Below, one piece after another: positions 31,181 to 46,598 of a stretch of 51,133 bases of DNA. Each line of letters begins with the position of its first letter. The stretch's first letter is position 1. Both the position numbers and the translations under genes were made by a program. Under the pieces are notes generated by a model that ran no database searches, had not been told where the DNA came from, and saw only the letters and a list, made by a program, of their open reading frames with translations. The DNA is taken from positions 1-51,133 of the forward strand of contig NZ_JALKFX010000047.1 of assembly GCF_023243045.1 (NCBI RefSeq), read 5' to 3'. The stretch is from Frankia sp. AgB32. Its GTDB lineage: Bacteria; Actinomycetota; Actinomycetes; Frankiales; Frankiaceae.

Positions 31181-31342
31181 CGCGTCCCTTTTCGTTGAGA
31201 AGAAAGGTCGCTCAGTCGTCCGAGCCGGGTTGGAAGTCTCGATTCGTCGCATCGGGAGCGTACGGCGCCGCGGCGACGCGCGTCCCCGAAGGCGTCCGAC
31301 CGAGGAGATCGCAATGGGACGATTGGCGACCGACCTTGGCTG

Positions 31343-31370
31343 TTGACAGGCCGTCACGATCCGGTTGAAT
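31343..31370 (+). promoter_or_regulatory. Candidate promoter of the phosphonate operon
   Basis: TTGACA at 31343-31348 and TTGAAT at 31365-31370 are spaced by 16 bp, about 75 bp upstream of the panC-like TTG start. The -35 box is perfect, the -10 box imperfect. This is the clearest promoter-like pair in the intergenic region shared with the divergent serine hydrolase. Confidence 0.45.
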
Positions 31371-31444
31371 CGTCGTCGTACGGATCTTGGTCACGTCGCG
31401 GGGTGTGCGGTCGACATGCCCGGACCGACTGTGGAGGCAACACG

Positions 31445-32383
31445 TTGTTGAAAATACTGCGCACGATCGAGGAAGTGCGGCAGCATACGCGTGAATGGCG
31501 CGCCGAGGGCTCCTCCATAGGCTGCGTCATGACGATGGGCGCTCTCCACGAAGGTCACCTGAGCCTTGTCGACGCCGCCCGTAGAGAATGCGACAAAGCT
31601 ATTCTCACCCTGTTCGTCAATCCGCTCCAGTTCGGCCCCACGGAGGACTTCGCCCGCTACCCGAGGACCGAGGAGGCAGATTTCCAGGCGCTGCGCGACC
31701 GGGCGTGTGACGCGGTCTTCGCGCCGGCGACGGAAACCATCTTCCCCTCGGGTGAACGGAGCATGGAGCAGGTCCGCACCCAGATCGTCGTGCGCGGGCT
31801 GACCGATCTGCTGTGCGGCCCGCGCCGCCCGGGGCACTTCGACGGCCTCACCACCGAGGTCCTCAAGATGCTGCACATCGTCGACTGCGATCGCACGTAC
31901 TGGGGAGAGAAGGACTACCAGCAGTACGCCGTGATCCGGGCGATGGTCGAGGATCAGGGACTGCCGGTGGCGGTGGTGCCCTGCCCGACGGCGCGCGACG
32001 TCGACGGACTGGCGCTGAGCAGCCGCAACACCTATCTGGACGCCGCCCAGCGGGCGATCGCGCCGGGGCTTTACGAGGAACTGCGCCGAGGCGCGCGCCG
32101 GATCGCCGAGCAAGGCGTCGACGTCGTCCCCGAGGTCACGGCCCAGCTCGCGGGAGCCCTGCTGGCACGCGGGTTCGACCTGGTCGAGTACGTCGAGGTG
32201 CACACCGACTCTCTCGGCCCGGCCGTCGCGGGCACACCGGTGGAGGCGCTGCGGGTCTTCGCGGCGGTGCGCCTCGGCGGCGCGCGCCTGCTGGACAACG
32301 TCGCCGTCGCCAACGAGGTCGCCGTCGCCAACGAGGTCGCCGTCGCCAACGATGTCGCCGTCGCCAACGAGGCTGGCCGGTGA
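31445..32383 (+). CDS. panC-like: Pantothenate-synthetase-like ligase (PanC family), first gene of the phosphonate operon
   Basis: A 312-residue PanC homologue. PanC adenylates pantoate with ATP and joins it to beta-alanine. Signature motifs are all present: MTMGALHEGHLSLV with the nucleotide-binding HxGH at 35-38, NPLQFGP with Asn59/Gln62 in the pantoate site, LCGPRRPGHFDG (124-134), GEKDYQQ (154-160) with the catalytic Lys, and LALSSRN (189-195). The normally conserved Pro before TMG is Met. The start TTG at 31445 is supported by GGAGG 7-8 nt upstream. The last residues are four VAVANE-type repeats not found in ordinary PanC. Its GTGA overlap with the aldehyde dehydrogenase ties it to the cluster. 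panB and panD are not adjacent. It may be a repurposed amide ligase or a resistance copy. Confidence 0.88.
   Translation: MLKILRTIEEVRQHTREWRAEGSSIGCVMTMGALHEGHLSLVDAARRECDKAILTLFVNPLQFGPTEDFARYPRTEEADFQALRDRACDAVFAPATETIFPSGERSMEQVRTQIVVRGLTDLLCGPRRPGHFDGLTTEVLKMLHIVDCDRTYWGEKDYQQYAVIRAMVEDQGLPVAVVPCPTARDVDGLALSSRNTYLDAAQRAIAPGLYEELRRGARRIAEQGVDVVPEVTAQLAGALLARGFDLVEYVEVHTDSLGPAVAGTPVEALRVFAAVRLGGARLLDNVAVANEVAVANEVAVANDVAVANEAGR
32300..32371 (+). repeat. 18-bp tandem repeat, 4 copies, at the 3' end of the panC-like gene
   Basis: Four copies of GTCGCCGTCGCCAACGAG (one with T for the last G) encode VAVANE, VAVANE, VAVAND, VAVANE. It ends 12 bp before the stop and 8 bp before the overlapping GTG of the next gene. 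Confidence 0.95.
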
Positions 32384-33789
32384 ACGAGATCAGGGGTCTG
32401 TTCTCCGGTGGCCGGTGGTCGCCGGGCGTCGGCGTCGCCGAGGTCCGCAACCCCTACACCGACGACGTGGTGGGCACGGTGGCGCACGCGAACGCGGAGC
32501 AGGCGCTGGAGGCGGTGCGCCGACTCGGTGCCGCTCGGTCCGAGCTGACCGCGTACGACCGCGGCGACATTCTCGCCGCGACGGCGGAACTCCTCCACCG
32601 CGAACGGGCCGAGGTCTCGGCCACGATCTGCCAGGAGTCCGGCCTGGCCATCGCCGACGCCCGGCGGGAGGTGGACCGGGCCACCACGCAACTGCGCTAC
32701 TACGCGGAGGAGAGCAAGCGCATCACCGGCGAGACCATCCGGACCGACGTCACCAGTGCCCGGCAGCGCCGCCTCGCGATCACCACCCGCGAGCCGATCG
32801 GCGTCGTGTGCGCCGTCACGCCGTTCAACCGTCCGCTCAACCAGGTCGTCACCAAGGTCGCCCCGGCGATCGCCGCCGGCAACCGGGTTGTCGTGAAGCC
32901 GTCGGAGAAGACGCCGCTGAGCGCGATCCGCTTCGTGGACGCGCTGCTGCGGTCGGGCCTGCCCGCCGACCTGATCGCGCTGGTGTGCGGCGAGCCCGGC
33001 GAGGTCGTGAACGCGCTGCTGCGGTCCGGCCAGGTCGACATGTTGACGTTCACCGGCAGCACGAGGGTGGGCCGGCTGCTCGCCGCGTCGGCCGGGATGA
33101 TCAGGCAGACCTACGAGCTCGGGGACAGCGGGGCGCTCGTCGTCCTGGCGGATGCGGACCTTCCCGCGGCCGTCGCGGCGGCCACCGCGGGCGCGTTCGC
33201 CACCTCCGGGCAGTCGTGCCGCGGGGTCAAGCGCATCATCGCGCACGCCGACATCGCCGACGAGTTCGCCGCCGCGCTCACCGCCGCCGCGGCGAAACTG
33301 GTGGTCGGCGATCCGGCGGATCCGGCGACCGACATCGGCACCCTGATCGACACCGACGCCGCCCGCGAGGTGGACGACCGGGTGGCCCGGGCCGTCGCGG
33401 CGGGCGCGCGGGTGCTGTCCGGGGCCCGCCGGGTGGGCGCCCAGTACTGGCCCACCGTCCTCGACGACGTGCCGCGGGACGCGGATCTGGTGCGCCTCGA
33501 GACCTTCGGCCCGATCGCTCCGGTGATCCGGGTGACGGGCTTCCCCGAGGCGGTGGAGGTCGTCAACGACACCCCGTACGGCCTGCAGGCGGGGATCTTC
33601 ACCAACAACCTGGACCACGCCCACCGCGCGGCCGAGCTGTTCGACGTGGGCGCGGTCGTGCTCAACGGCGGACCGCAGTTCGAGTCACCCAACATCCCGT
33701 TCGGCGGGGTGAAGGACAGCGGCCTGGGCCGGGAGGGCGCGAGATACGCGATCGAGGAGATGACCAGGGTGAAGACCCTTGTCCTCTGA
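32380..33789 (+). CDS. Aldehyde dehydrogenase, probable phosphonate-pathway enzyme
   Basis: A 469-residue NAD(P)-dependent aldehyde dehydrogenase. Catalytic features are in place: TPFNRPLN with Asn150, VVKPSEKTP with Lys173, the NAD-loop TFTGSTRVG, ELGDSG with Glu246 (the usual second Gly is Asp), and GQSCRGVKR with the nucleophile Cys280. ETFGPIAPVI and IPFGGVKDSGLGREG complete the family. In this setting it most likely oxidises phosphonoformaldehyde to phosphonoformate, as proposed for an aldehyde dehydrogenase in the phosphinothricin pathway; phosphonoacetaldehyde is an alternative substrate. Its GTG start overlaps the panC-like stop by 4 bp. A 67-bp gap separates it from the methyltransferase. 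Confidence 0.9.
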   Translation: MNEIRGLFSGGRWSPGVGVAEVRNPYTDDVVGTVAHANAEQALEAVRRLGAARSELTAYDRGDILAATAELLHRERAEVSATICQESGLAIADARREVDRATTQLRYYAEESKRITGETIRTDVTSARQRRLAITTREPIGVVCAVTPFNRPLNQVVTKVAPAIAAGNRVVVKPSEKTPLSAIRFVDALLRSGLPADLIALVCGEPGEVVNALLRSGQVDMLTFTGSTRVGRLLAASAGMIRQTYELGDSGALVVLADADLPAAVAAATAGAFATSGQSCRGVKRIIAHADIADEFAAALTAAAAKLVVGDPADPATDIGTLIDTDAAREVDDRVARAVAAGARVLSGARRVGAQYWPTVLDDVPRDADLVRLETFGPIAPVIRVTGFPEAVEVVNDTPYGLQAGIFTNNLDHAHRAAELFDVGAVVLNGGPQFESPNIPFGGVKDSGLGREGARYAIEEMTRVKTLVL

Positions 33790-33856
33790 CGCCTCCCACC
33801 AGTCCGGACAGCATCGCGAGCCGGAGAGACCGGGCACTGCGAACCAAGGAGGCTGG

Positions 33857-34639
33857 GTGACCGGCCCTACCGGTGACCGCAAGATCACCAATGCGAAGGC
33901 CGCCGCCTGGGACGGCCTGGGCAGCGCGTACTGGAACCGCGCCTACGACGGTGGGCCGAGCCCCGCGGCCTGCGCCCAGTACCTCGACGGCACGGCCCGT
34001 GGCCAGCGGGTGCTCCTGGTCGGCGCCAGCACGGTTTCCCTCGCCCGCGCGGCGCTCGACGTCGGCGCGGAGCTGGTGGTCGCCGACTTCTCCGCGGTGA
34101 TGCTGGCCGAGCTGGCGGTGGTGCTCCCCGGCGGGGCCGAGTTCGCCCTGGTCGACGTCACCCGCGCCGACGCGCCCTTCGACGCCACGTTCGATCTCGT
34201 GGTGGCCGACCGGCTGCTCAACCGGTTCGTCCTCGCCGAGCTGCGCGCGGCCCTGCGGACCCTGACCGCCGCGGTGCGCCCCGGCGGGCTGACGCGGCTG
34301 AGCTACCGCTCGGGGCTGTACGAGCGGGACCGGGTGGTGCTCGCCGAGGCCGCGCGGCGCGGCGTGCTGACCACCGTCTTCGACGAGGCCGAGTTCGACG
34401 TCGACTACAGCGCGGCGGCGCCGTGGCTCGCCGCGGTGCTGCCCCGGCACGGGGACATCCCGATGGCCGCGCTGATCGACTTCTACGTGGCCAGGGGCCG
34501 GGAACACCGGATCAGACCAGGTGAGCTCGACGAGTTGGCCGCCCAGGTCGTGCCGCCGGGCGTCCACTACGAGACCGCGCACCCACCGGTCCCCGGTCAG
34601 GGCGACGACTTCCTTTTCGAACTCCGCCGCCTGACATGA
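33857..34639 (+). CDS. SAM-dependent methyltransferase of the phosphonate operon
   Basis: A 260-residue class I methyltransferase-like protein. AAAWDGLGSAYWNRAYD opens the domain, and motif I is QRVLLVGASTVSLARAALDVGAELVVADFS, in which the usual GxGxG is relaxed to GASTVS. The acidic Asp ending strand 2 is kept. AEFALVDVTRADAP and FDLVVADRLLNRF fit motifs II and IV. The start GTG at 33857 follows a perfect AAGGAGG. It overlaps the transporter gene by 4 bp. It could O- or N-methylate the phosphonate product, but weak motif I leaves open a non-methylating role. Confidence 0.78.
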   Translation: MTGPTGDRKITNAKAAAWDGLGSAYWNRAYDGGPSPAACAQYLDGTARGQRVLLVGASTVSLARAALDVGAELVVADFSAVMLAELAVVLPGGAEFALVDVTRADAPFDATFDLVVADRLLNRFVLAELRAALRTLTAAVRPGGLTRLSYRSGLYERDRVVLAEAARRGVLTTVFDEAEFDVDYSAAAPWLAAVLPRHGDIPMAALIDFYVARGREHRIRPGELDELAAQVVPPGVHYETAHPPVPGQGDDFLFELRRLT

Positions 34640-35955
34640 TCGTCGACACGGGGACACGGGACTTCCACGTCCTGTGGTGCGGCGAGTCGATCAGCCTGCT
34701 CGGCGACCGGGTGGCCACGTTCGCCGTGCCCACCATCGCGATCCTCACCCTGCACGCGACCGCGTTCCAGGTCGGGCTGCTGACGATGGCCACGTACATC
34801 GCGTACCCGGTCGCCGGTATCGGGGCGGGTCTGCTCGTGGACCGGTTCAGCCGCCGGCGAATGATGGTGCTGGCCGGCGTCGCGCGCCTCGTCCTGTTCA
34901 TGAGTATTCCGGTGGTGGCGCGCTCCGGCGGGCTCACCCTCGGACAGCTGCTGCTGGTCGTCGCGGCGAGTGGTTGTTTCACCCTGCTGTACGACGTGGC
35001 GTTGCAGGGGTATCTCCCCCTCCTGCTGACCGGTGGTGACCTGCCGCGGGGAAACGCCCGGGTGGAGGTCTCGCGCAGTACGTCGCAGGTCGTCGGACCC
35101 GCGCTCGGCGGGGCGGTGTCGGGTGTGTTCGGGGCGAGCACCGCGGTGGGCCTGAACGCGATGTCCTTCCTCGGCTCCGTTCTCGGCGTGCTGTCCGTGC
35201 GGACGCCGGAACCACCGCCCGAGCCCCGTTCGCCGTCGCAGGGCGTGGCGGGCCGGCTCCGGGAGGGCTTCGCGTTCGTCCTTGGCCACGAGCTGCTGCG
35301 ACCGCTCACCTTCTGCGCCGCGATGCGCAACCTCGGCATCACGGTGACCAAGACGGCGATCTTCCTCTACGCCTACCGGGCGCTGCACCTCTCCGCCGGC
35401 GTCACCGGGGTGATCCTGGCCGGTGGAGCGGTGACGGCGGTGCTGGGCGCGGCGGTCTCCGGACGCGTCGTGCGCAGGTTCGGCTACGGCCGGACGCTGC
35501 TGTTCACGGTCGCGGAAGGGGCGACGTGGACGCTCGTGCCGTTCGCCCTGCTGGGCCATCCGGCCCAGGTCCTCGGGGCGATCGTCGCGTTCTCCTCGCC
35601 CTGGCTGGCGATCTGGAACTCCCAGGTGGCCGTCGCGCGCCAGGTGCTGGCACCGGCCCGGTTGCAGAGCCGGGTGCTCTCCTCGATCCGGGCGATCGCC
35701 TGGGGAACCCTGCCGCTGGGATCGCTGCTGGGCGGCGGGCTCTCCCTCGTCCTCGTCGGCGCGTTCGGTGAACGGGCCGGGCTCGCCCTGACGATCGTCG
35801 TGGGTGGCCTGCTCGCGACGAGCGGTGGCGCCTGGCTGCTCGCTCCGGCCGTCCGGAACACGCGCCTGATTCCCCGGGCGCATCCCCACCATTCCGGCGA
35901 ATCGCGGCGGCGATATTCCACCGCGGTAGTCAGCCCCACCATCGGACGTCCGTGA
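34636..35955 (+). CDS. MFS transporter, probable phosphonate exporter
   Basis: A 439-residue major facilitator protein with about 12 hydrophobic segments. SISLLGDRVATFAVP (helix 1) and the loop 2-3 motif GAGLLVDRFSRRRMMVLAG match the EntS/DHA3-type exporters. The second half has GSLLGGGLSLVLVGAFGER. Its ATG overlaps the methyltransferase stop by 4 bp and HEPD follows by 16 bp, so it is inside the operon. Export of the finished product, and thereby self-protection, is the likely role (inference). Confidence 0.88.
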   Translation: MIVDTGTRDFHVLWCGESISLLGDRVATFAVPTIAILTLHATAFQVGLLTMATYIAYPVAGIGAGLLVDRFSRRRMMVLAGVARLVLFMSIPVVARSGGLTLGQLLLVVAASGCFTLLYDVALQGYLPLLLTGGDLPRGNARVEVSRSTSQVVGPALGGAVSGVFGASTAVGLNAMSFLGSVLGVLSVRTPEPPPEPRSPSQGVAGRLREGFAFVLGHELLRPLTFCAAMRNLGITVTKTAIFLYAYRALHLSAGVTGVILAGGAVTAVLGAAVSGRVVRRFGYGRTLLFTVAEGATWTLVPFALLGHPAQVLGAIVAFSSPWLAIWNSQVAVARQVLAPARLQSRVLSSIRAIAWGTLPLGSLLGGGLSLVLVGAFGERAGLALTIVVGGLLATSGGAWLLAPAVRNTRLIPRAHPHHSGESRRRYSTAVVSPTIGRP

Positions 35956-35971
35956 CCGAGGAGCGTCACAC

Positions 35972-37432
35972 ATGCTGTTGGACACATTCAAGGTCGTTCA
36001 CCGGATGAACGCCCAGAAGCTCACCGGTCCTGAACTCGCGATGCGGCTGGCGATCACCGAGGAGGAGCTCGGTCGGCTACTCGCCACCGACACGTTCGAC
36101 GCGGCGGACGATTTCGCCGACCTTCTCGCCAAGCACCTCGAGACCGATCTGCCGCAGCTGTCCGAAAGCGGCGGCGCGAACCACGTGGTGATCCGCTCGG
36201 CGGACGAACTGCGGGCCACCCGCCGGGCCGTGCAACGCGACGGCATTCATTTCTACAACTACTACTCGATGGCGGCGCCGGTCGGCCGGGTGGCGCCGGT
36301 CGTCCTCGACATCCTGTGTCCCGCCGGCCGACTGCCCGCCCTGAACAACGGCCACCTCGAGCCCGCGATCACGGTGAACCTGGGCCCGGGTGACATCCAT
36401 GGCCGCTGGGGCACCGACCTGACCGAGGCGACCTGGCGGCGGATGCGGGCGGGGACCGACGCCGTGCCCTGGGTGGCCGGCGACTCCTACGTGGAGCCGT
36501 CCTACTGCCCGCACACGTACGGTCTGGCGACGGAGCTGCCTGCGAGGATCATCTCCTACACCGGGGCGTCCGGCCTACAGGCTCTGGTCGGGGAGACGAA
36601 CTCCTGGGCCGACCACGCCTTCGAGGCGATGGTGGAGTCGGTGTCCGACGGCGCTCCAGGCGCGATCCTGCGCGGCCTGCTGGCCCGCCGCGGCCACGAC
36701 CTGACCAGCCTGGCGCGGGCGACCGGCATCCCCCGCGGACGTCTCGCCGAGGCCGGGAACCTGACGCTCGACGAGGTGCGCGCGGTGGCCCGGGTGCTCG
36801 CGACGGACTACCGGATCCTGCTCCCCGCGATGCGCGACCACGACGAGGTCGGCAAGACGTTCTGTTCCGTGGACAGCAGCGTGGCGAGCATCCGCCCGTT
36901 CCGCGGCTACGAGGTCGCCTCGCTGGCCGCCGCGCCGCACCTGCCCGACCTGACCGGGATGTTCATGCACGTGCGGCGGGCCACCGGCGACCCGGTGCTC
37001 GATCTCCGCGACTTCGCCGAGACCCACTACCTCGTCCTGGCCGGCGAGATCACCCTGTGGTGGCGCCGGGACGGCGACGGGATCGGCTCCGCGCGGCTGA
37101 CCGCGGACGGCAGTGCCTGGGTGCCGCCGTTCGTCGCGCACGGCTGGTCCGGTTCCGGATCGGTGGTGAAGCTGGGCAGCGGCCGGCATCTGTCCCACGC
37201 CGACCACCTCGAGCTGTCGAGCACCTTCCAGCCACAGTGGCTGCTGCGCCGCGCGCGCCGCGACCGGCTCGGCTGGGGTTACGACACCCGGACCGGGACG
37301 GCACAGTCGGGCGGGACGGCACAGTCGGGTGGGACGGCACAGTCGGGCGGGACGGCACAGTCGGGCGGGACGGCACAGTCGGGCGGGACGGCACAGTCGG
37401 GCGGGACGGCACGGTCGGGTGGGGCGCAGTGA
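35972..37432 (+). CDS. 2-Hydroxyethylphosphonate dioxygenase (HEPD)
   Basis: A 486-residue homologue of HEPD (PhpD) / methylphosphonate synthase. HEPD cleaves 2-hydroxyethylphosphonate with O2 to hydroxymethylphosphonate and formate, using one Fe(II). Compared from memory with the Streptomyces enzyme, the key residues are all visible with a one-residue offset: Lys16, Arg89, Tyr97, Asn125, iron ligands His128 (NNGHLEP), Glu175 and His181 (EPSYCPH), and Ser195. Glu at 175, rather than the Gln of archaeal methylphosphonate synthase, favours HEPD. The two-domain cupin layout is kept (second half from about 218; DFAETHYLVLAGEITLWW). The last about 45 residues are seven GTAQSG-type repeats absent from ordinary HEPD. 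GAGGAG precedes the ATG at 35972. It overlaps the next gene by 4 bp. Confidence 0.93.
   Translation: MLLDTFKVVHRMNAQKLTGPELAMRLAITEEELGRLLATDTFDAADDFADLLAKHLETDLPQLSESGGANHVVIRSADELRATRRAVQRDGIHFYNYYSMAAPVGRVAPVVLDILCPAGRLPALNNGHLEPAITVNLGPGDIHGRWGTDLTEATWRRMRAGTDAVPWVAGDSYVEPSYCPHTYGLATELPARIISYTGASGLQALVGETNSWADHAFEAMVESVSDGAPGAILRGLLARRGHDLTSLARATGIPRGRLAEAGNLTLDEVRAVARVLATDYRILLPAMRDHDEVGKTFCSVDSSVASIRPFRGYEVASLAAAPHLPDLTGMFMHVRRATGDPVLDLRDFAETHYLVLAGEITLWWRRDGDGIGSARLTADGSAWVPPFVAHGWSGSGSVVKLGSGRHLSHADHLELSSTFQPQWLLRRARRDRLGWGYDTRTGTAQSGGTAQSGGTAQSGGTAQSGGTAQSGGTAQSGGTARSGGAQ
37295..37420 (+). repeat. 18-bp tandem repeat, 7 copies, at the 3' end of the HEPD gene
   Basis: Seven copies of GGGACGGCACAGTCGGGC (last base C or T; the seventh has one more change) encode a GTAQSG array. 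It ends 12 bp before the HEPD stop and abuts the overlapping start of the next gene, exactly as the repeat in the panC-like gene does. Confidence 0.97.
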
Positions 37433-38460
37433 GGCGGGGCGCAGTCAGGCGCGTGGTGTACACCGACCCGGCCTGGGCACTCGACCGGCACGGTGAGACA
37501 GACCCGTCGCTGGCGACGATCGAACGCGAGGTGTACGGGGAGGACGTCGAGTTCTCCCTCGGGCTGCGCCGCGACGGCCGGTTCCTCCTCGATGGCGCGG
37601 AGTTCGACCGGCACGTCGCCGGCGCGGACGCGCTGGTCGTCTACCGGGCCCGGGTCAGCCCACGGCTGCTGGACGCGGTGGGCCCGTCCTGCCGGCTCGT
37701 CGCCCGCCAGGGGGTGGGGCTGGACAACCTCAACGCCGAACTCCTGCGCGCGCGGGGCCTGTGGGGCTTTCATGTCCCGGACTACTGCGGCGACGAGGTC
37801 AGCACGCACACCCTGGCCCTGGCGCTCGCCCTCGAACGCGGGGTCTGCGTCCAGGACCAGCTGGTGCGCGACCGGGCGTGGGACATCCACGCCGGTCGGA
37901 TTCCCCGGCGCACCGCGGCGCTGACCGCGGGCATCGTGGGTTTCGGCCGGATAGGCCGGGCCACCAGCCGCAAGCTGCATGCCTTCTACGGGCGGACCGT
38001 GGCCCACGATCCCTACATCCCGGCCGACCTGATGGCCAGCCACGGCGTGGTGCCCGCCGCCTCGCTGGCCGAGCTGTTCGCCGTGTCGGACGTCGTCGTG
38101 CTGCACACGGAGCTGACCGCCGAGACCGAGCGGCTGGTCGACGAGGCCGTGCTCCGGTCGTGTCGGCCGGGGGCCCTGCTCGTCAACACCGCCCGCGGCG
38201 GGCTCGTCGATCTTCCCGCCGTGCTGGCCGCCCTGCGCGACGGACGCCTCGGCGGATTCGCCTCCGACGTCTTCTCCCCGGAGGACCCCAACGACGACGA
38301 GGTCGGTCGGGAGCTGCTGCGCCGTCCCGACGTCATCGTCACGGCCCACCGGGCGTTCCTGTCCGCCGAGTCGGAGCTCAGCCTGCGGCGGCGGGTCGCC
38401 GCCGGAGTGCGGCACGTGCTGCGGGAGGGCCAGCCTCCGCCCGCGGGCCGGGTCGCGTGA
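37429..38460 (+). CDS. D-2-hydroxyacid dehydrogenase, PhpE-like
   Basis: A 343-residue NAD-dependent dehydrogenase of the phosphoglycerate-dehydrogenase superfamily. The Rossmann motif is GFGRIGRA at 171-178. The catalytic triad segments are NTARGGLVD (Arg near 255), the Glu of DVFSPEDPN, and the His of TAHRAF near 307. CRLVARQGVGLDNL and DYCGDEVSTHTLALALALER are typical. A homologue (PhpE) beside HEPD in the phosphinothricin cluster is thought to oxidise hydroxymethylphosphonate, so the same step is proposed here. The start GTG at 37429 overlaps the HEPD stop; an in-frame GTG at 37453 is possible. Confidence 0.87.
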   Translation: MRRGAVRRVVYTDPAWALDRHGETDPSLATIEREVYGEDVEFSLGLRRDGRFLLDGAEFDRHVAGADALVVYRARVSPRLLDAVGPSCRLVARQGVGLDNLNAELLRARGLWGFHVPDYCGDEVSTHTLALALALERGVCVQDQLVRDRAWDIHAGRIPRRTAALTAGIVGFGRIGRATSRKLHAFYGRTVAHDPYIPADLMASHGVVPAASLAELFAVSDVVVLHTELTAETERLVDEAVLRSCRPGALLVNTARGGLVDLPAVLAALRDGRLGGFASDVFSPEDPNDDEVGRELLRRPDVIVTAHRAFLSAESELSLRRRVAAGVRHVLREGQPPPAGRVA

Positions 38461-38498
38461 GCCCACCTGTCGAGACCCGGCCTGTTGGAGGACATGAG

Positions 38499-39359
38499 AT
38501 GCGGCGAATCACGAACAGGACTTTCCGGGACGTGCTGGTGGAGGGCCCGGCCGTGCGGGCCGCGGGCGTCCACGACGCGTTGGGAGCAATGCTGGCCGAG
38601 CAGGCGGGCTTCGCCGCGGTCTGGGCGTCCAGCCTGGGGATCTCCGCGGCGCGGTGCGTGCCCGACGCGAGCCTGCTCACGATGACCGAGTACCTCCAGG
38701 CCGCGGTGCACATGCAACGCCGGGTGGGCATCCCGGTCGTCGCCGACTGCGACACGGGTTTCGGTGACACCCTCAACATCGCCTATCTGGTGCACGAGTA
38801 CGAGGCGGCGGGAATCAGCGCGGTCTGCATCGAGGACAAGCAGTACCCGAAGATGAACAGCTTCGTGCCGGGCCAGCACGCCCTGCTCGACACCGCCGCC
38901 TTCGCCCGGAAGATCTCCATCGCGAAGGCGGTCCAGACCGGCGCCGACTTCTTCGTCATCGCCCGCACGGAGGCCCTGATCAGCGGGCTCGGGGTCGACG
39001 AGGCGCTGCATCGCTGCCACGCGTACGCCGAGGCCGGCGCGGACGCCGTGCTGGTCCACTCCCGGCAGCGGACCAGCGTCGAGGTGGAGGCCTTCCTCGA
39101 CCGGTGGGACGCTCGCGCGCCGGTCGTGGTGGTGCCGACGACGTATCCCGACTGGCATTTCGACGACGCGGTCAAGGCCGGGGTCTCCATGGTCATCTAC
39201 GCCAACCAGGGGCTGCGGGCGACGATCGACGCGTTACGGACGACCTTCGGCTCGATCATCGCGCACGGCGGGTCGGCCCACCTCGAGGCCGACCTGGCGT
39301 CGTTGACCGAGGTGTTCGAGCTGCAGCGGCTCCGGCAGTGGCGGGAGCTGGAAGGGTGA
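38499..39359 (+). CDS. ppm: Phosphoenolpyruvate phosphomutase (PEP mutase)
   Basis: A 286-residue PEP mutase that forms the C-P bond by converting PEP to phosphonopyruvate, the entry step of almost all phosphonate synthesis. The decisive motif EDKxxPKxNS is present as EDKQYPKMNS (112-121), which separates it from isocitrate-lyase-family relatives. The metal and PEP site is ADCDTGFGD (82-90), and FFVIARTEALISGLG follows the normal pattern. The start ATG at 38499 has GGAGG upstream. It overlaps the decarboxylase gene by 4 bp, so the thermodynamically unfavourable mutase product can be consumed at once. One TTA codon is at 39234-39236. Confidence 0.96.
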   Translation: MRRITNRTFRDVLVEGPAVRAAGVHDALGAMLAEQAGFAAVWASSLGISAARCVPDASLLTMTEYLQAAVHMQRRVGIPVVADCDTGFGDTLNIAYLVHEYEAAGISAVCIEDKQYPKMNSFVPGQHALLDTAAFARKISIAKAVQTGADFFVIARTEALISGLGVDEALHRCHAYAEAGADAVLVHSRQRTSVEVEAFLDRWDARAPVVVVPTTYPDWHFDDAVKAGVSMVIYANQGLRATIDALRTTFGSIIAHGGSAHLEADLASLTEVFELQRLRQWRELEG

Positions 39360-40546
39360 TCGACACCGACCGGTTCTGTGCGCGTCTGATCGCGCGCGGT
39401 TTCACCTCCGCCACCGGCGTGCCCTGCTCGTACTTCACCGGCCCGATCGAACGGCTGTCCCGGGACAACCGGTACGTCCCGGCCGCGAACGAGGGCGCCG
39501 CGCTGGCCATCGCCGCGGGCGCGGCCCTGGGCGGCTCGCGGGTCGCCGTGTTCGCGCAGAACTCCGGCCTGGGAAATCTGATCAACCCGCTGACCTCGTT
39601 GCTGATGACCTACGACATCCCCGTGCTCGCGTTCGTGAGCCTGCGCGGCTGGCCCGACCCGTCCCAGGACGAACCGCAGCACGCCGTCATGGGGCGGGCC
39701 ACCTCACGGATGCTCGACGCGCTGGGCGTGGCCTGGTGGTTGTTGACCGCCACGACGACCGACCTCGACCGCGTCCTTGACGAGGCGGAGCGCGAACTGG
39801 CCCGCGGCCGACCCGCGTTCGTCCTGGTCGAGAAGGGAGCCATCACCGGGATCGGAACGGGCGGCGCTGGCAGCGAGGCCGCCCCGGGTGGGCCGGGCGC
39901 GGGCGAGGTGGACGACGGCCGCGCGGCCTGCACCCGCGCCGAGGTCCTCCGAGCGATCCGGCCCGAGCTGCGCGACCTGCCGATCATCTCCACGACCGGC
40001 TACACCTCGCGCGAGCTGTTCGCGCTCGGGGACGCTGACACCCACTTCTACATGCAGGGCTCCATGGGCCACGCCACGGCGCTCGGTCTGGGGCTGGCGC
40101 GGACGGGGCCCGCCACCCGGCCGGTGATCGTCCTCGACGGCGACGGGGCCGCGTTGATGCACCTGGGCACGATGTCGACCGTCGGCTTCAGCGCCCCGGC
40201 CAACCTGGTGCACGTCCTGTTCGACAACGGCGCCTACGAGTCCACCGGCGCGCAGGCGACCACCTCGGCGGCGACCGACTTCGTCGGGATCGGGCTGGCC
40301 TGCGGCTACCGCAGCGCGCTCGCCTGCGCGCGGCCCGAGGACGCCCGGTCCGCGCTGCGCGTGATGCTCTCGACGCCCGGACCGCACCTGCTCGTCGTGC
40401 GGGTGGCGCCGGCCGGGGCCGGCGCCACCGCCCCGGCTCGGGCGACGTCCGCGGTCAGCGCGCCGCGGATATACCGGCGCCTGCGGGCCCGGCTGGCCAC
40501 CGACGGGCCCGACGACGGGGAGACACCGTGTGCCCGCCCGAGCTGA
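39356..40546 (+). CDS. ppd: Phosphonopyruvate decarboxylase
   Basis: A 396-residue thiamine-diphosphate enzyme that decarboxylates phosphonopyruvate to phosphonoacetaldehyde, making PEP mutase irreversible. The N-terminal RGFTSATGVPCSYFTGPIERL is diagnostic, with NEGAALAIAAGAALGG (catalytic Glu) and AVFAQNSGLGNLINPLTSL following. The C-terminal ThDP-binding segment is VIVLDGDGAALMHLGTMS ... FDNGAYESTGAQ. Between the halves lies a Gly/Ala-rich linker near residues 163-185. GTG at 39356 overlaps the mutase stop; its 3' end overlaps the alcohol dehydrogenase by 19 bp. Confidence 0.95.
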   Translation: MIDTDRFCARLIARGFTSATGVPCSYFTGPIERLSRDNRYVPAANEGAALAIAAGAALGGSRVAVFAQNSGLGNLINPLTSLLMTYDIPVLAFVSLRGWPDPSQDEPQHAVMGRATSRMLDALGVAWWLLTATTTDLDRVLDEAERELARGRPAFVLVEKGAITGIGTGGAGSEAAPGGPGAGEVDDGRAACTRAEVLRAIRPELRDLPIISTTGYTSRELFALGDADTHFYMQGSMGHATALGLGLARTGPATRPVIVLDGDGAALMHLGTMSTVGFSAPANLVHVLFDNGAYESTGAQATTSAATDFVGIGLACGYRSALACARPEDARSALRVMLSTPGPHLLVVRVAPAGAGATAPARATSAVSAPRIYRRLRARLATDGPDDGETPCARPS

Positions 40547-41646
40547 TCAACGCGGCGGGTTCCGTGTCGGGGCTGGCGCGGGTGGTGGGGACGGGCCGGC
40601 GCGTGCTGGTGGTGGCCAGCGCCCGCGCGTTCCGGGCGGCCGGGGTGGCGGAGCTGCTGGCGGACAACGACGTCGCGGTGTTCTCCGGTTTCACGCCGAA
40701 CCCGCGCCTGCCCGACGTGCTCGCCGGGTGCCGGTTGCGGGACGGGTGGCGGCCGGAGGTGATCGTCGGTCTCGGCGGTGGCAGCGCGCTCGACGTGGCG
40801 AAGATGGTCCGCCTGCTGCCCGCCGACCCCGAGCGGGCCCGTGCGGCGCTGCACCGCTTCGAGCCACCCGACCAGCGTCCGCCGCTCGTGCTCGTGCCGA
40901 CGACCGCCGGCCCGGGCACCGAGGTCACCCGGTTCGCGACGGTCTTCGACGGCGACACCAAGCTGTCGCTGGACCACGCCGCGGTGCTGGCCGACGTGGC
41001 CGTCGTCGACCCCGACCTGGCGGCGTCGTGCCCGTCGAGCCTCGTCGGAAGCTGTGCCTTCGACGCGCTGTGCCACGCCGTCGAGTCGTGGTGGAGCCGG
41101 CGGTCGACGCCGCGTTCCCGCGAGTTCGCGGGTGAGGCGTTGCGCGCCCTCGTGCCGCTGCTGCGGCGACCGGTGGCCGAGCGGGACGCCGCGTACCGCG
41201 GCACGCTGGCGGGCGCGGCGCTCGCGGCGGGTCGCGCCATCGACCTCACGAGGACGACGGCGGCCCACGCCTTCGCGTACCGGCTGACCACACGGTACGG
41301 CGTGCCGCACGGCGTCGCCTGCCTGCTGAACCTGCGGTGGCTGCTGCCCCTCCACCTGGCGATGGCGCAGCGGCCCGGCGTCGAGAGCCGGGTCGTCGAG
41401 CACGTCACCGACATCGTCGAGGTGCTCGGCCTCGCCGGCCGGGAGCGGACGGACTGCTTCACCGACTGCTTCACCGAATACTTCACGGCGTTCGGCTGGT
41501 CACCCCGGCTGCGGGACTACGGGATCGGCCGCGACGCGCTGCCGTCGCTCGTGGACGCCGGGCTGGCGACCCGGGCCAGGGCGGGGAACAACCCGATCGA
41601 GCTGGACCGGGACCTGGTGCTGCGGGCGATGGCTACCGTCCTCTGA
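40528..41646 (+). CDS. Iron-containing alcohol dehydrogenase, phosphonoacetaldehyde reductase
   Basis: A 372-residue group III alcohol dehydrogenase. The nucleotide motif GGGSALDVAK is at 83-92, VPTTAGPGTEVTRF is the conserved substrate/cofactor segment, and metal ligands appear as the Asp of DPDLAAS, CHAVESWWS, AHAFAYRLT and GVPHGVACLLN. Homologues beside PEP mutase reduce phosphonoacetaldehyde to 2-hydroxyethylphosphonate, the substrate of the HEPD encoded upstream. The GTG at 40528 follows GGGGAGA. A TDCFTDCFTEYFT repeat lies near residue 310. It is the last gene of the operon, and only 27 bp separates it from the convergent dehydrogenase gene. Confidence 0.92.
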   Translation: MCPPELINAAGSVSGLARVVGTGRRVLVVASARAFRAAGVAELLADNDVAVFSGFTPNPRLPDVLAGCRLRDGWRPEVIVGLGGGSALDVAKMVRLLPADPERARAALHRFEPPDQRPPLVLVPTTAGPGTEVTRFATVFDGDTKLSLDHAAVLADVAVVDPDLAASCPSSLVGSCAFDALCHAVESWWSRRSTPRSREFAGEALRALVPLLRRPVAERDAAYRGTLAGAALAAGRAIDLTRTTAAHAFAYRLTTRYGVPHGVACLLNLRWLLPLHLAMAQRPGVESRVVEHVTDIVEVLGLAGRERTDCFTDCFTEYFTAFGWSPRLRDYGIGRDALPSLVDAGLATRARAGNNPIELDRDLVLRAMATVL

Positions 41647-41673
41647 GCGCGGGGACGGAGACGTCCGCCGGAC

Positions 41674-42684
41674 TCAGCCACCGCCCGGCCGGGTGAGCAC
41701 GTACCCCAGTCTCTTGTCGACGACGTTGCGCAGCGGGCTTCCGGACCGCCAGCGCCGGTAGTTGTCGACGAACAGGTCGGCCAGCGTGGGCAGATATCCG
41801 ACGAAGTCGCCGGCCATGTGCGGCGAGATCAGCGCGGTGGGCAGCGACCACAGCGGCGAGGAGGCCGCCAGCGGTTCGGTGTCGACGACGTCCAGCGCCG
41901 CGCCCGCGATGACGCCGTCGCGCAGCGCCGCGACCAGGTCCTCGGTCACCACCAGCGCACCCCGACCGACATTGATCAACCGGGCGGACCGGCGCATCGC
42001 GGCCATCGTCGTGGCGTTGAACATGCCGGCGGTACGCGCGGTCAGCGGAGCGGCCGCTATCACGAAATCCGCGTGCGGCAGCCGCCCGACCCACTGGTCG
42101 AAGCCATGCACCACGCCGAAGTCCGGATCATGGTCGCGCGGTGCCCGCCCGATGCCCTCGACGCGCATGCCCACCGCCCGCAGCATCCGCGCGATCGCGC
42201 GGCCGATAGGCCCGGTGCCCACGATCACCACGGCCCGCCCGTCGATCCGCTCGGTCTCCCGGTGGTGCCAGCGGCGTTCCCGCTGCGCCGCACAGGTGCC
42301 GGGGACGTCCTTGGCGAAGGCGAGCACGAGGCCAAGCACGTACTCGGCCATCGCGCCCTCGAAGACACCCCGCGAGTTGGTCAGCACCACGTCGCCGTCC
42401 CGCAACGCGGAGAACAGCAGGGTGTCCACCCCGGCGCTGGCGATGTGGACCCATCGCGGCGGGTTCGTGGCCGGCCACGCCCCCTCGACCGCCGTGGAGG
42501 TGAAGTCCCACACGAACAGCGCGTCCGCGCCGCGCAGGGCCGCGGGCAGGCCCGCCGCCGTGGTGTAGCGGACCACGGCGGCGGATTGGATCAGCTCCAG
42601 GCCGGGTGGGCGTCGGTCGGCGCACAACACCGCGACCACCGGTCCGCGCGCCGCACCGGGCAGGTCGGGCACCCGGGCGGTCAT
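41674..42684 (-). CDS. Second D-2-hydroxyacid dehydrogenase of the cluster
   Basis: A 336-residue dehydrogenase more like glyoxylate/hydroxypyruvate reductases. The Rossmann motif is VIVGTGPIGRAIARML near 148-163. Catalytic residues sit in INVGRGALV (Arg), ALDVVDTEPLAASSPLW (Glu) and ISPHMAGDF (His). WVHIASAGVDTLL and SRGVFEGAMAEYVLGLVLAFAKD are typical. It is translationally coupled to the aminotransferase (TGATG, 1-bp overlap). It differs clearly from the PhpE-like copy, so a different substrate is expected; reduction of a 2-oxo acid to a D-2-hydroxy acid is the default reaction (inference for this case). Confidence 0.85.
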   Translation of the reverse strand: MTARVPDLPGAARGPVVAVLCADRRPPGLELIQSAAVVRYTTAAGLPAALRGADALFVWDFTSTAVEGAWPATNPPRWVHIASAGVDTLLFSALRDGDVVLTNSRGVFEGAMAEYVLGLVLAFAKDVPGTCAAQRERRWHHRETERIDGRAVVIVGTGPIGRAIARMLRAVGMRVEGIGRAPRDHDPDFGVVHGFDQWVGRLPHADFVIAAAPLTARTAGMFNATTMAAMRRSARLINVGRGALVVTEDLVAALRDGVIAGAALDVVDTEPLAASSPLWSLPTALISPHMAGDFVGYLPTLADLFVDNYRRWRSGSPLRNVVDKRLGYVLTRPGGG

Positions 42685-43901
42685 CACGGGCCGGCGCGCC
42701 CACCCGCGGCCGACCACACCCGCTCGATGCCCGCCAGGAGCTGCGCGTCGGGAATGGTCAGCGGCGGGGCCACCCGGATGCGTTCACCGTGCCGACCCCC
42801 GCTGAACACGAGCACGCCGTCGGTGAACGCCTGGCGCACCAGGTCCCGGCTCGCGACGGCGGTCGGCTCGAAGGACAGCGACGGGCCGATCGCGTGCACC
42901 GCGCGGGCCAGGCCGGCCGTCCGCAGCCGGTCGGCGAGCTCCGCCAGCCGGGTGCCGACCGCCGCGCCCATGCCCGCCACGTCGTTGTCGTCGATGTAGC
43001 GGGTCACCTCGTACGCGGCGGCGGTGCCCAGGGTCCCCGTCTGGAAGGTGTGCGCCAGATACACCGGATCCGCGCCCGCCTCCAGAAAGCGCCTGTACAC
43101 CACGGCCGACAGCGGGTACATGCCGTTGGTGAGGGACTTGCTGTACAGGACGATGTCCGGGTCCAGCCCCCAGGCGGTGGCCGGGCTGAACTCGCCGTGC
43201 CGGAAGAACCCGCACTGGATCTCGTCGGCAATCGTGATCACGCCGGCCGACGCCGCCGAGGACGTCACCTCGCCCAGCCACTCGCGGTCGAGCGGCACGT
43301 AGCCGTTGGCCCCCTGCACCGGCTCGTAGATCAGGCAGGAGATGCCGTCCCAGGCGCGCGGCACGACGCCCGGGGTCAGGTGGACCACCTCGGGGGCGAG
43401 CAGATCGGCGAAGCCGGTGTCGTGCAGGGAGAACCGTCGCTGCACGCTGGTGAGCGCCGCCGCGTCCACGCCGAGACCGTGGAACCCCCCCTCGATCGAC
43501 ATCACCCGGCCCGGGCGGGCGCGGCGGGCCAGTGCCAGCGCGGCCGCCACCGCGAAACTGCCGCCCACCTGGTAGAGGACGCGCCGGCCGGGCGGGTCGG
43601 GCAGCCGGGCGCACAGCCACTGCGCGACCCGGTCCGCGTCCGGGCCGTGGAACAACCCGGTGAGGTCGGACGATCGGGTCAGGGCCCGTTCGATCGCCGG
43701 GTTGCGGTGGCCGAAGTTGACGGCCGCGAACGCCGACATGAAGTCGATGCACCGGTGCGGCGCGCCGGTTTCGCCGACCAGGTCCAGGGTGGCGTTGTCC
43801 GCGTGGACGAGGACGTAACGCTGGTCGAGCACGCCGGCCTCGTCCAGCCGGCTCTGATACGACCGGTCCCCGATCCGCGGCGTGGAGTCGGCGATGGTCA
43901 C
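42684..43901 (-). CDS. Class III PLP-dependent aminotransferase
   Basis: A 405-residue class III transaminase. IDFMSAFAAVNFGHRNPAI opens the fold, GGSFAVAAALALARRA lies near the cofactor phosphate, CLIYEPVQGANGYVP and TIADEIQCGFFRHGEF carry the PLP Asp, and the Schiff-base lysine is in VLYSKSLTNGMYPLSAV near residue 240. A C-terminal RIRVAPPL completes it. In a phosphonate cluster it could aminate phosphonoformaldehyde or phosphonoacetaldehyde to aminomethyl- or 2-aminoethylphosphonate, or supply an amino acid (inference). GTG at 43901 has GGAGGGG upstream. Transcribed with the dehydrogenase, convergent to the main operon. Confidence 0.88.
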   Translation of the reverse strand: MTIADSTPRIGDRSYQSRLDEAGVLDQRYVLVHADNATLDLVGETGAPHRCIDFMSAFAAVNFGHRNPAIERALTRSSDLTGLFHGPDADRVAQWLCARLPDPPGRRVLYQVGGSFAVAAALALARRARPGRVMSIEGGFHGLGVDAAALTSVQRRFSLHDTGFADLLAPEVVHLTPGVVPRAWDGISCLIYEPVQGANGYVPLDREWLGEVTSSAASAGVITIADEIQCGFFRHGEFSPATAWGLDPDIVLYSKSLTNGMYPLSAVVYRRFLEAGADPVYLAHTFQTGTLGTAAAYEVTRYIDDNDVAGMGAAVGTRLAELADRLRTAGLARAVHAIGPSLSFEPTAVASRDLVRQAFTDGVLVFSGGRHGERIRVAPPLTIPDAQLLAGIERVWSAAGGRAGP

Positions 43902-46537: not shown

Positions 46538-46598
46538 GCCGGCCAGCCGGTCCCGCTCCGCGTCCCGCAGTGCGCCCGACCAGAAAGCGGTGATCTTC

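What the first reader, a model, noticed from the sequence alone, without database searches (positions are those of the whole stretch)
31445..43901. Phosphonate gene cluster with a HEPD branch but without the phosphinothricin end steps
Seen: PEP mutase (EDKQYPKMNS), phosphonopyruvate decarboxylase, Fe-ADH, HEPD with all key residues, a PhpE-like dehydrogenase and an aldehyde dehydrogenase in one operon. Established: this set leads from PEP to hydroxymethylphosphonate and on toward phosphonoformate. Inference: carboxyphosphonoenolpyruvate mutase, the CTP-dependent phosphonoformate transferase and NRPS genes are missing, and a PanC-type ligase, methyltransferase and transaminase are present instead, so the product should be a different, possibly undescribed small phosphonate.
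Basis: partly seen in the sequence, partly recalled or inferred. Interest (0 to 1): 0.88.

Follow-up and report, generated by a model that had tools for sequence, protein, structure and literature searches.

The report
Unusual phosphonate gene cluster in Frankia
A nitrogen-fixing plant-symbiont bacterium carries a compact set of genes that should build a small carbon-phosphorus compound by the first steps of the phosphinothricin herbicide route, then finish it with a vitamin B5-type ligase; the product is unknown.

Summary
Positions 29966-43901 carry a 12-gene phosphonate cluster of a Frankia genome: PEP mutase, phosphonopyruvate decarboxylase, Fe-alcohol dehydrogenase, 2-hydroxyethylphosphonate dioxygenase (HEPD; full-length match to PhpD, iron ligands kept), a PhpE-like dehydrogenase, a PhpJ-like aldehyde dehydrogenase, plus PanC, a methyltransferase, an MFS exporter, a second 2-hydroxyacid dehydrogenase, a class III aminotransferase and a PF00144 hydrolase. 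All 12 lie in the same order in three other Frankiaceae genomes; six flanking genes tested were not found beside it there. The phosphinothricin end steps are missing. The aldehyde dehydrogenase groups with a phosphinothricin-type homologue (100/98), so the route probably reaches phosphonoformate. The cluster's PanC is a second copy of a separate lineage that keeps the pantoate and beta-alanine site, unlike other Frankia PanC paralogues. Best reading: hydroxymethylphosphonate, then phosphonoformaldehyde, then an unknown small phosphonate finished by PanC and the aminotransferase. The last step is inference; PanC could instead be a resistant target copy. The cluster probably moved between two Frankiaceae genera. 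A published antiSMASH table counts one phosphonate cluster in each of the three Frankia strains that match; I found no description of it in the open papers searched. New variant of a known kind.

The parts
29966..31357 (-). PF00144 serine hydrolase (beta-lactamase/esterase family); divergent from the operon, conserved next to it in 4 of 4 genomes; role unknown
   Evidence: Pfam 195 bits; 69-84% identical tblastn matches in the same place in three relatives
31445..32383 (+). PanC-type ligase (pantoate--beta-alanine ligase family), second copy in the genome; ends in an 18-base tandem repeat
   Evidence: TIGR00018 over cut-off; second copy; substrate-site residues kept; repeat
32380..33789 (+). 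PhpJ-like aldehyde dehydrogenase, predicted phosphonoformaldehyde to phosphonoformate
   Evidence: PF00171 459 bits; groups with the aldehyde dehydrogenase of a phosphinothricin-type cluster 100/98
33857..34639 (+). SAM-dependent class I methyltransferase; substrate unknown
   Evidence: PF08242, PF13649, PF08241; best PDB match 3iv6
34636..35955 (+). MFS transporter, predicted exporter
   Evidence: PF07690, PF05977
35972..37432 (+). 2-hydroxyethylphosphonate dioxygenase (HEPD); C-terminal tail is an 18-base tandem repeat that the five aligned homologues lack
   Evidence: PhpD 3g7d E 3e-132; ligands invariant; repeat
37453..38460 (+). PhpE-like D-2-hydroxyacid dehydrogenase, predicted hydroxymethylphosphonate to phosphonoformaldehyde
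   Evidence: PF02826; 58% identity to the comparator's PhpE-like protein
38499..39359 (+). PEP mutase, EDK-X5-NS motif present
   Evidence: PF13714; PDB 5unc PEP mutase E 2e-80; motif in 4 of 4
39356..40546 (+). phosphonopyruvate decarboxylase
   Evidence: TIGR03297 over cut-off
40528..41646 (+). iron-containing alcohol dehydrogenase, predicted phosphonoacetaldehyde reductase
   Evidence: PF00465, PF25137
41674..42684 (-). second D-2-hydroxyacid dehydrogenase; in Ca. Frankia californiensis fused to an AMP-binding ligase domain
   Evidence: PF02826; fusion in L006 14032-16581
42684..43901 (-). class III (4-aminobutyrate type) aminotransferase
   Evidence: PF00202; PDB PuuE/GabT; 81-86% identical in three relatives

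Best explanation
It is a phosphonate natural-product cluster. By homology: PEP mutase makes phosphonopyruvate, the decarboxylase makes phosphonoacetaldehyde, the Fe-ADH reduces it to 2-hydroxyethylphosphonate, HEPD cuts it to hydroxymethylphosphonate (plus formate, from established knowledge of HEPD), the PhpE-like dehydrogenase oxidises that to phosphonoformaldehyde, and the PhpJ-like aldehyde dehydrogenase can carry it to phosphonoformate. There the phosphinothricin route is left. The remaining genes (PanC with an intact pantoate/beta-alanine site, 4-aminobutyrate-type aminotransferase, second 2-hydroxyacid dehydrogenase, methyltransferase) finish a small product, most likely an amide made by PanC from a pantoate-like 2-hydroxyacid and an amine made by the aminotransferase (aminomethylphosphonate being the obvious candidate); the MFS protein exports it. 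Shown: gene identities, conserved block, missing end genes, kept active-site residues. Inferred from families: each reaction up to phosphonoformaldehyde and phosphonoformate. Guessed: what PanC, the aminotransferase, the second dehydrogenase, the methyltransferase and the PF00144 hydrolase do.
For: All pathway genes in one tight run. HEPD matches PhpD over its length (E 3e-132), is 52% identical to each of two other HEPD homologues outside Frankiaceae, ligands kept. PhpE-like protein 58% and aldehyde dehydrogenase 49% identical to a Plantactinospora cluster that has PhpG (NF038358, 686 bits, over cut-off) and carboxyphosphonoenolpyruvate mutase (TIGR02319, 557 bits, over cut-off). 12 of 12 genes conserved in order in four genomes; six flanking window genes tested were not found in the stretches held beside the other three clusters. 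Cluster PanC is a second copy, keeps H44, H47, N69, Q72, Y82, R132, K160 and Q164 (M. tuberculosis numbering) in 4 of 4, while the 11 other non-housekeeping Frankia PanC paralogues lost N69, Q72 and R132 in 11 of 11; PMC5772511 (abstract in search listing) names H44, H47, N69, Q72, K160 and Q164 as substrate-binding. For argolaphos a dehydrogenase plus an aminotransferase are proposed to turn hydroxymethylphosphonate into aminomethylphosphonate, which six alp genes made in a Streptomyces host; aminomethylphosphonate is also a shunt product of a phpJ mutant (PMC8976061, passages).
Against: If phosphonoformaldehyde is meant for amination, the PhpJ-like aldehyde dehydrogenase competes with it; the two genes point to different fates. 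The aminotransferase is of another family than the one of argolaphos. PanC could have a role other than making the product. PEP mutase, Fe-ADH and aldehyde dehydrogenase fall below NCBIfam equivalog cut-offs. The aldehyde dehydrogenase tree holds no phosphonoacetaldehyde dehydrogenase of known function, so that substrate is not excluded. No expression or product is known; a Frankia alni nodule proteome reports most secondary-metabolite proteins undetected or underabundant (PMC8951365, passage).
Confidence: 0.6

Rival explanations
1. PanC is a self-resistance copy: the product attacks pantothenate synthetase, and the cluster supplies an insensitive second enzyme. The product is then phosphonoformate or a simple derivative.
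For: The cluster PanC keeps the residues needed to make pantothenate, is of a different lineage from the housekeeping copy (own clade 97/97; 40-49% identical in the aligned parts) and among the 13 genus genomes occurs in 3 of 3 with the cluster and 0 of 10 without (25 of the 26 matches placed in the tree; the 26th, L052, is a fragment). Target copies in phosphonate clusters are known to me from recall (threonine synthase in rhizocticin).
Against: PanC overlaps the aldehyde dehydrogenase gene by 4 bases, which fits assembly equally well; no phosphonate inhibitor of PanC is known to me.
Confidence: 0.25
2. The product contains aminomethylphosphonate as in argolaphos: the class III aminotransferase aminates phosphonoformaldehyde and the aldehyde dehydrogenase acts elsewhere.
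For: HEPD, PhpE-like dehydrogenase and an aminotransferase together, as in the alp cluster; alp also has an MFS protein and a PF00144 protein (PMC8976061 table).
Against: The aminotransferase is class III, not the PRK05764 type of AlpL; none of the amide ligase families of alp (ATP-grasp, GNAT) nor a nucleotidyltransferase beyond PanC was found by Pfam among the 12 genes. The aldehyde dehydrogenase is PhpJ-like.
Confidence: 0.3
3. The end product is phosphonoformate itself or its methyl ester, made by the aldehyde dehydrogenase and the methyltransferase; PanC and the two minus-strand genes serve another pathway.
For: PhpJ-like aldehyde dehydrogenase and a methyltransferase in the same run.
Against: PanC, second dehydrogenase and aminotransferase are conserved with the cluster in 4 of 4 genomes; at E 0.01 the methyltransferase profile matched only 3iv6 and 3e23, and the phosphonate O-methyltransferase DhpI, whose structure I recall, is not among them.
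Confidence: 0.15
4. A worn-down phosphinothricin cluster whose end genes were lost or lie elsewhere in the genome.
For: First six phosphinothricin-type functions are present.
Against: PhpG has no match in the whole assembly, 96% complete; the genes are intact in four genomes as far as aligned; six other genes (hydrolase, PanC, methyltransferase, MFS, second dehydrogenase, aminotransferase) are conserved with the block in 4 of 4.
Confidence: 0.05

Closest known systems
Phosphinothricin tripeptide (bialaphos) type clusters
   Same: PepM, Ppd, Fe-ADH, HEPD, PhpE-like dehydrogenase and PhpJ-like aldehyde dehydrogenase; compared here with a Plantactinospora alkalitolerans cluster
   Different: No PhpF-, PhpG- or PhpH-like protein and no carboxyphosphonoenolpyruvate mutase in the window, no NRPS domains in the 30 translations scanned; PanC, class III aminotransferase and a second 2-hydroxyacid dehydrogenase instead
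Argolaphos (alp) cluster of Streptomyces monomycini
   Same: PepM, Ppd, reductase, HEPD, dehydrogenase, an aminotransferase, an MFS protein and a PF00144 protein (PMC8976061, table in passage)
   Different: Aminotransferase of another family, an aldehyde dehydrogenase present, no ATP-grasp, GNAT or AlpM-type genes, PanC present. Comparison by table only; alp sequences were not at hand
Bacterial PanC, pantothenate synthetase
   Same: Scores over the TIGR00018 cut-off; the eight substrate-site residues checked are kept
   Different: Second copy inside a phosphonate cluster, own clade; Trp at position 157 and Tyr at 165 (M. tuberculosis numbering) in 4 of 4 cluster copies and in 0 of the 22 others
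Dactylosporangium siamense HEPD locus (L008)
   Same: HEPD 52% identical, with PepM, Ppd and Fe-ADH nearby
   Different: NRPS, glycerate-kinase, HAD and amine-oxidase genes; no PanC or aldehyde dehydrogenase match in the 21 kb held

Membership tests
HEPD (2-hydroxyethylphosphonate dioxygenase) | Full-length similarity to PhpD and the His-Glu-His iron site | tested here: met
   E 3e-132 over residues 1-438; H128, E175, H181 invariant in 6 of 6; ligand numbers recalled
HEPD (2-hydroxyethylphosphonate dioxygenase) | Turns 2-hydroxyethylphosphonate into hydroxymethylphosphonate | not testable with these tools
   Needs enzyme assay; a match to methylphosphonate synthase is far weaker (E 2e-5)
HEPD (2-hydroxyethylphosphonate dioxygenase) | Class I or class II motif (Tyr158-Gly179 in AlpG) | not tested
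   AlpG sequence not at hand; motif named in PMC8976061 passage
PEP mutase | EDK-X5-NS motif and PF13714 | tested here: met
   Motif in 4 of 4 cluster homologues; PF13714 over cut-off; motif rule from PMC3848822 passage
PEP mutase | NCBIfam equivalog TIGR02320 over cut-off | tested here: not met
   278.4 bits against 319.55, still its best NCBIfam match
Phosphinothricin-type cluster | Route to phosphonoformate (HEPD, PhpE, PhpJ) | tested here: met
   By sequence only: 58% and 49% identity to the comparator; aldehyde dehydrogenase clade 100/98
Phosphinothricin-type cluster | PhpF, PhpG, PhpH and carboxyphosphonoenolpyruvate mutase | tested here: not met
   No tblastn match in the window except the mutase query on the PEP mutase; PhpG no match in the genome
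Phosphinothricin-type cluster | NRPS genes for the tripeptide | tested here: not met
   No PF00501, PF00668 or PF00550 among 30 window translations scanned; the rest of the window and the genome were not scanned for it
Phosphinothricin-type cluster | Radical-SAM P-methylase | not tested
   No query sequence used
Argolaphos-type cluster | AlpL-type aminotransferase and amide ligases of ATP-grasp or GNAT type | tested here: not met
   Aminotransferase is PF00202 class III; no such ligase domain in the 12 genes
PanC pantothenate synthetase | Family score and substrate-site residues | tested here: met
   TIGR00018 262 against 212.75; residues kept in 4 of 4
PanC pantothenate synthetase | Makes pantothenate | not testable with these tools
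   Needs complementation or assay

The most novel reading that the evidence does not exclude
The cluster makes a phosphonate analogue of pantothenate: the co-opted PanC joins pantoate (or a similar 2-hydroxyacid made by the second dehydrogenase) to aminomethylphosphonate made by the aminotransferase, giving an antimetabolite of coenzyme A synthesis in a plant root symbiont.
Probability: 0.17. Interest if true: 0.78.

Novelty: new variant of a known kind. Interest (0 to 1): 0.55.

Why it matters
Hydroxymethylphosphonate-branch clusters lead to the herbicide phosphinothricin and to argolaphos; a third kind of ending, with a vitamin B5 ligase, would mean a new scaffold and a new way of forming the amide, or a new target with its resistance gene. 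It sits in nitrogen-fixing root symbionts and seems to have moved between genera of them, so the compound may matter for life in or around plant roots. Two of the strains that match, F. alni ACN14a and (by contig count) AgB32, stand in a table of cultivated and type strains (PMC9760358), so the product is within reach.

Tried and rejected
A first mapping script stopped on a missing file name and mixed loci; it was redone. The first PanC alignment misread nine loci that lie on the minus strand (HK_G005, G007, G010; X1_G001, G009; X2_G001, G005, G010, G011); it was thrown away and redone with strands corrected, and no count rests on it. The genus search for HEPD lists 10 of 13 genomes at E 0.001, but 7 of these match only the repeat-rich C-terminal tail (query residues 426-486); 3 are full-length. 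Larger samples: 4 of 393 class genomes, all Frankiaceae, 1 of 396 phylum genomes, the window's own; in both only 4 candidates were scored in each genome shown. Looking for the cluster-type PanC elsewhere gave only the window's own at E 1e-80 among 396. Of the 19 other aldehyde dehydrogenase matches, two were left out of the tree (L072 gave no tblastn match, L073 is a short piece). The methyltransferase profile against the PDB gave two uninformative matches. The promoter scan found none; the terminator scan found 5 against 2.8 +/- 1.7 in shuffles. Literature searches for the cluster, for PanC in phosphonate clusters and for pantoyl phosphonates showed no description; some listings were cut (30 of 229 shown, 20 of 435, 15 of 87, 20 of 46). 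Two PNAS papers that I recalled as surveys of phosphonate genes are not held, so prior mention there cannot be excluded. Two 'pepM' paper hits were PepMap columns. The idea that the block is a worn phosphinothricin cluster was rejected because the other genes are conserved and intact. No structure prediction was run.

Full report
What is there. The window is contig C216 of a 6.68 Mb genome in 274 contigs. In the genome collection its HEPD is closest to those of Candidatus Frankia californiensis (79%) and Frankia canadensis (68%). The contig count, size and the presence of one phosphonate cluster fit Frankia strain AgB32 in Tables 1 and 3 of PMC9760358 (274 contigs, 6.71 Mb; one section and passages read); that naming is inference. 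The single-contig relative G001 (7,497,934 bases) fits F. alni ACN14a in the same tables, also by inference. G002 is F. canadensis (same 27,284-base contig) and G666 is Ca. F. californiensis (same match coordinates).

Genes. Pfam and NCBIfam give, left to right: a PF00144 hydrolase (29966-31357, -), then on the plus strand PanC, aldehyde dehydrogenase, methyltransferase, MFS transporter, HEPD, 2-hydroxyacid dehydrogenase, PEP mutase, phosphonopyruvate decarboxylase and Fe-alcohol dehydrogenase, and on the minus strand a second 2-hydroxyacid dehydrogenase and a class III aminotransferase. HEPD itself has no Pfam match over cut-off and no NCBIfam match at E 0.001; it was named by its PDB match. 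Gaps in the plus-strand run are -4, 67, -4, 16, 20, 38, -4 and -19 bases, so one transcript is likely. Over NCBIfam equivalog cut-off: decarboxylase and PanC. Below it: PEP mutase (278 against 319.6), Fe-ADH, aldehyde dehydrogenase.

HEPD. The protein aligns to PhpD (3g7d) over its whole length, E 3e-132; methylphosphonate synthase matches only weakly (E 2e-5). The PhpD residues K16, R90, Y98, N126, H129, E176 and H182 (numbers recalled, counted on the alignment) correspond to K16, R89, Y97, N125, H128, E175 and H181, all invariant in the six-sequence alignment.

Conservation and borders. tblastn of 18 window proteins against the three relatives' loci finds the 12 genes from the hydrolase to the aminotransferase in the same order and strand in 3 of 3, and none of the six flanking genes tested (ABC pair, TMEM175, two luciferase-like, M20 peptidase) in any. 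The stretches held beyond the block are limited: about 2.0 and 1.7 kb in L006, 3.9 and 3.7 kb in L007 (9.7 kb on the left in L027), 5.5 and 8.7 kb in G001. In L007 the first 53 residues of the PEP mutase are not in the matched frame, perhaps a sequencing error. In L006 the second dehydrogenase is fused in frame behind an AMP-binding ligase domain, an extra activating enzyme; in the other three the second dehydrogenase and the aminotransferase lie within about 80 bases of each other or overlap, with no room for it.

Missing end steps. A Plantactinospora alkalitolerans locus (L009) that the HEPD search brought in has PhpG (NF038358, 686 bits against 545) and carboxyphosphonoenolpyruvate mutase (TIGR02319, 557 against 420), an enolase-like protein and a cytidylyltransferase-like protein (the labels PhpF and PhpH for the last two are mine, from gene order and family). 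Its proteins searched against the window at E 0.001 give: PhpE-like 58%, aldehyde dehydrogenase 48.5%, PEP mutase 43%, decarboxylase 43%, Fe-ADH 37%, and nothing for PhpF, PhpG, PhpH or the metallo-hydrolase; the mutase query finds only the PEP mutase at 30%. PhpG has no match in the whole assembly. No NRPS domain was found in the 30 window translations scanned, one of which was a wrong-frame ORF.

Aldehyde dehydrogenase. In a tree with 17 other aldehyde dehydrogenases of the same genome (of 19 others listed), the four cluster proteins and the phosphinothricin-type one form a clade at 100/98. The closest solved structure is 4i3t (I recall it as phosphonoacetaldehyde dehydrogenase PhnY, the entry says only aldehyde dehydrogenase). 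The tree holds one PhpJ-like sequence and no PhnY, so the preference for phosphonoformaldehyde over phosphonoacetaldehyde is not tested.

PanC. Twelve of 13 genus genomes have PanC-family proteins; G000, G001 and G002 have the cluster copy besides a housekeeping one. With strands corrected, 26 proteins fall into the cluster type (4), the housekeeping type (11), and two further types X1 (6) and X2 (5) (the fragment L052 was left out and the L006 genome's copy added). 'Housekeeping' is my label, from presence in genomes without the cluster. The cluster type forms its own clade (97/97). At the M. tuberculosis positions H44, H47, N69, Q72, Y82, R132, K160 and Q164 the cluster copies have the same residues as the housekeeping ones, 4 of 4 and 11 of 11; X1 and X2 have lost N69, Q72 and R132 in 11 of 11. 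The abstract of PMC5772511 (seen in the listing) names His44, His47, Asn69, Gln72, Lys160 and Gln164 as binding the substrates; the roles of Y82 and R132 are recalled. So this PanC looks like one that still adenylates pantoate. What sets the cluster copies apart are Trp at position 157 and Tyr at 165, beside Gln164 (4 of 4 against 0 of 22). That tells for a pantoate-like acid as substrate, and leaves open whether the amine is beta-alanine (plain pantothenate, hence supply or resistance) or a phosphonate amine.

Transfer. Mean identity over the 12 cluster proteins is 94.0% (91.1-96.2) between Ca. F. californiensis and G001, which belong to different genera, against 76.4% for ArgJ and 69-72% (two pieces) for housekeeping PanC. 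Between the window and G001, of one genus, it is 81.9%, against 88.3% for ArgJ and 86% for PanC. Two housekeeping genes are few, but the reversal is strong: the cluster has probably moved between the genera. Only 3 of 13 genus genomes have a full-length HEPD, 4 of 393 in a class sample, all Frankiaceae.

Prior knowledge. Full-text searches showed no paper that describes this cluster, in listings that were partly cut. PMC9760358 Table 3 counts one antiSMASH 'phosphonate' cluster in ACN14a, ARgP5 and AgB32 and zero in the other eight strains of that table; PMC9194555, seen only as a passage with numbers, counts one in its first two columns. A 2025 survey of actinomycete phosphonates (PMC12723261) has no mention of Frankia or HEPD in its main text (find). 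Argolaphos was compared from passages and a table of PMC8976061. The library holds open-licence papers only.

Reading. The route to hydroxymethylphosphonate I hold at about 0.85, to phosphonoformaldehyde at 0.75, to phosphonoformate at 0.65, and a product other than phosphinothricin at 0.9. The use of PanC is open: assembly of an amide (about 0.5), resistant copy (0.25), other. These are judgements, not computed.

Noticed in passing
window 32299-32372, 37294-37451, 41452-41486: Short tandem repeats (18-, 15- and 12-base units) at the 3' ends of the panC and HEPD genes and near the end of the Fe-ADH gene; the HEPD repeat tail is absent from the five aligned homologues, and it alone matches in 7 other Frankia genomes of 13 searched.
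   Followed up: partly
L006 14032-16581: In Ca. Frankia californiensis the second dehydrogenase of the cluster is fused in frame to an AMP-binding (acyl-AMP ligase-like) domain.
   Followed up: partly
loci L039, L043-L051, L053: Frankia genomes carry two further PanC-like families (X1, X2) that have lost the substrate-site residues N69, Q72 and R132 while keeping H44, H47, K160 and R198; their function is unknown.
   Followed up: partly
L009 8673-20847: Plantactinospora alkalitolerans carries what looks like a phosphinothricin-type cluster with PhpG and carboxyphosphonoenolpyruvate mutase.
   Followed up: partly
L008 1-21329: Dactylosporangium siamense has an HEPD locus with PEP mutase, decarboxylase, an NRPS, a glycerate-kinase-family gene and an amine oxidase; another possible unknown phosphonate.
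   Followed up: no
window 2650-4734: A protein kinase domain joined to an NMT1-like domain (PF16868) in one protein.
   Followed up: no
window 222-1127, 21128-22201, 45368-47834: At least four luciferase-like (PF00296) monooxygenase genes lie within the 51 kb window.
   Followed up: no
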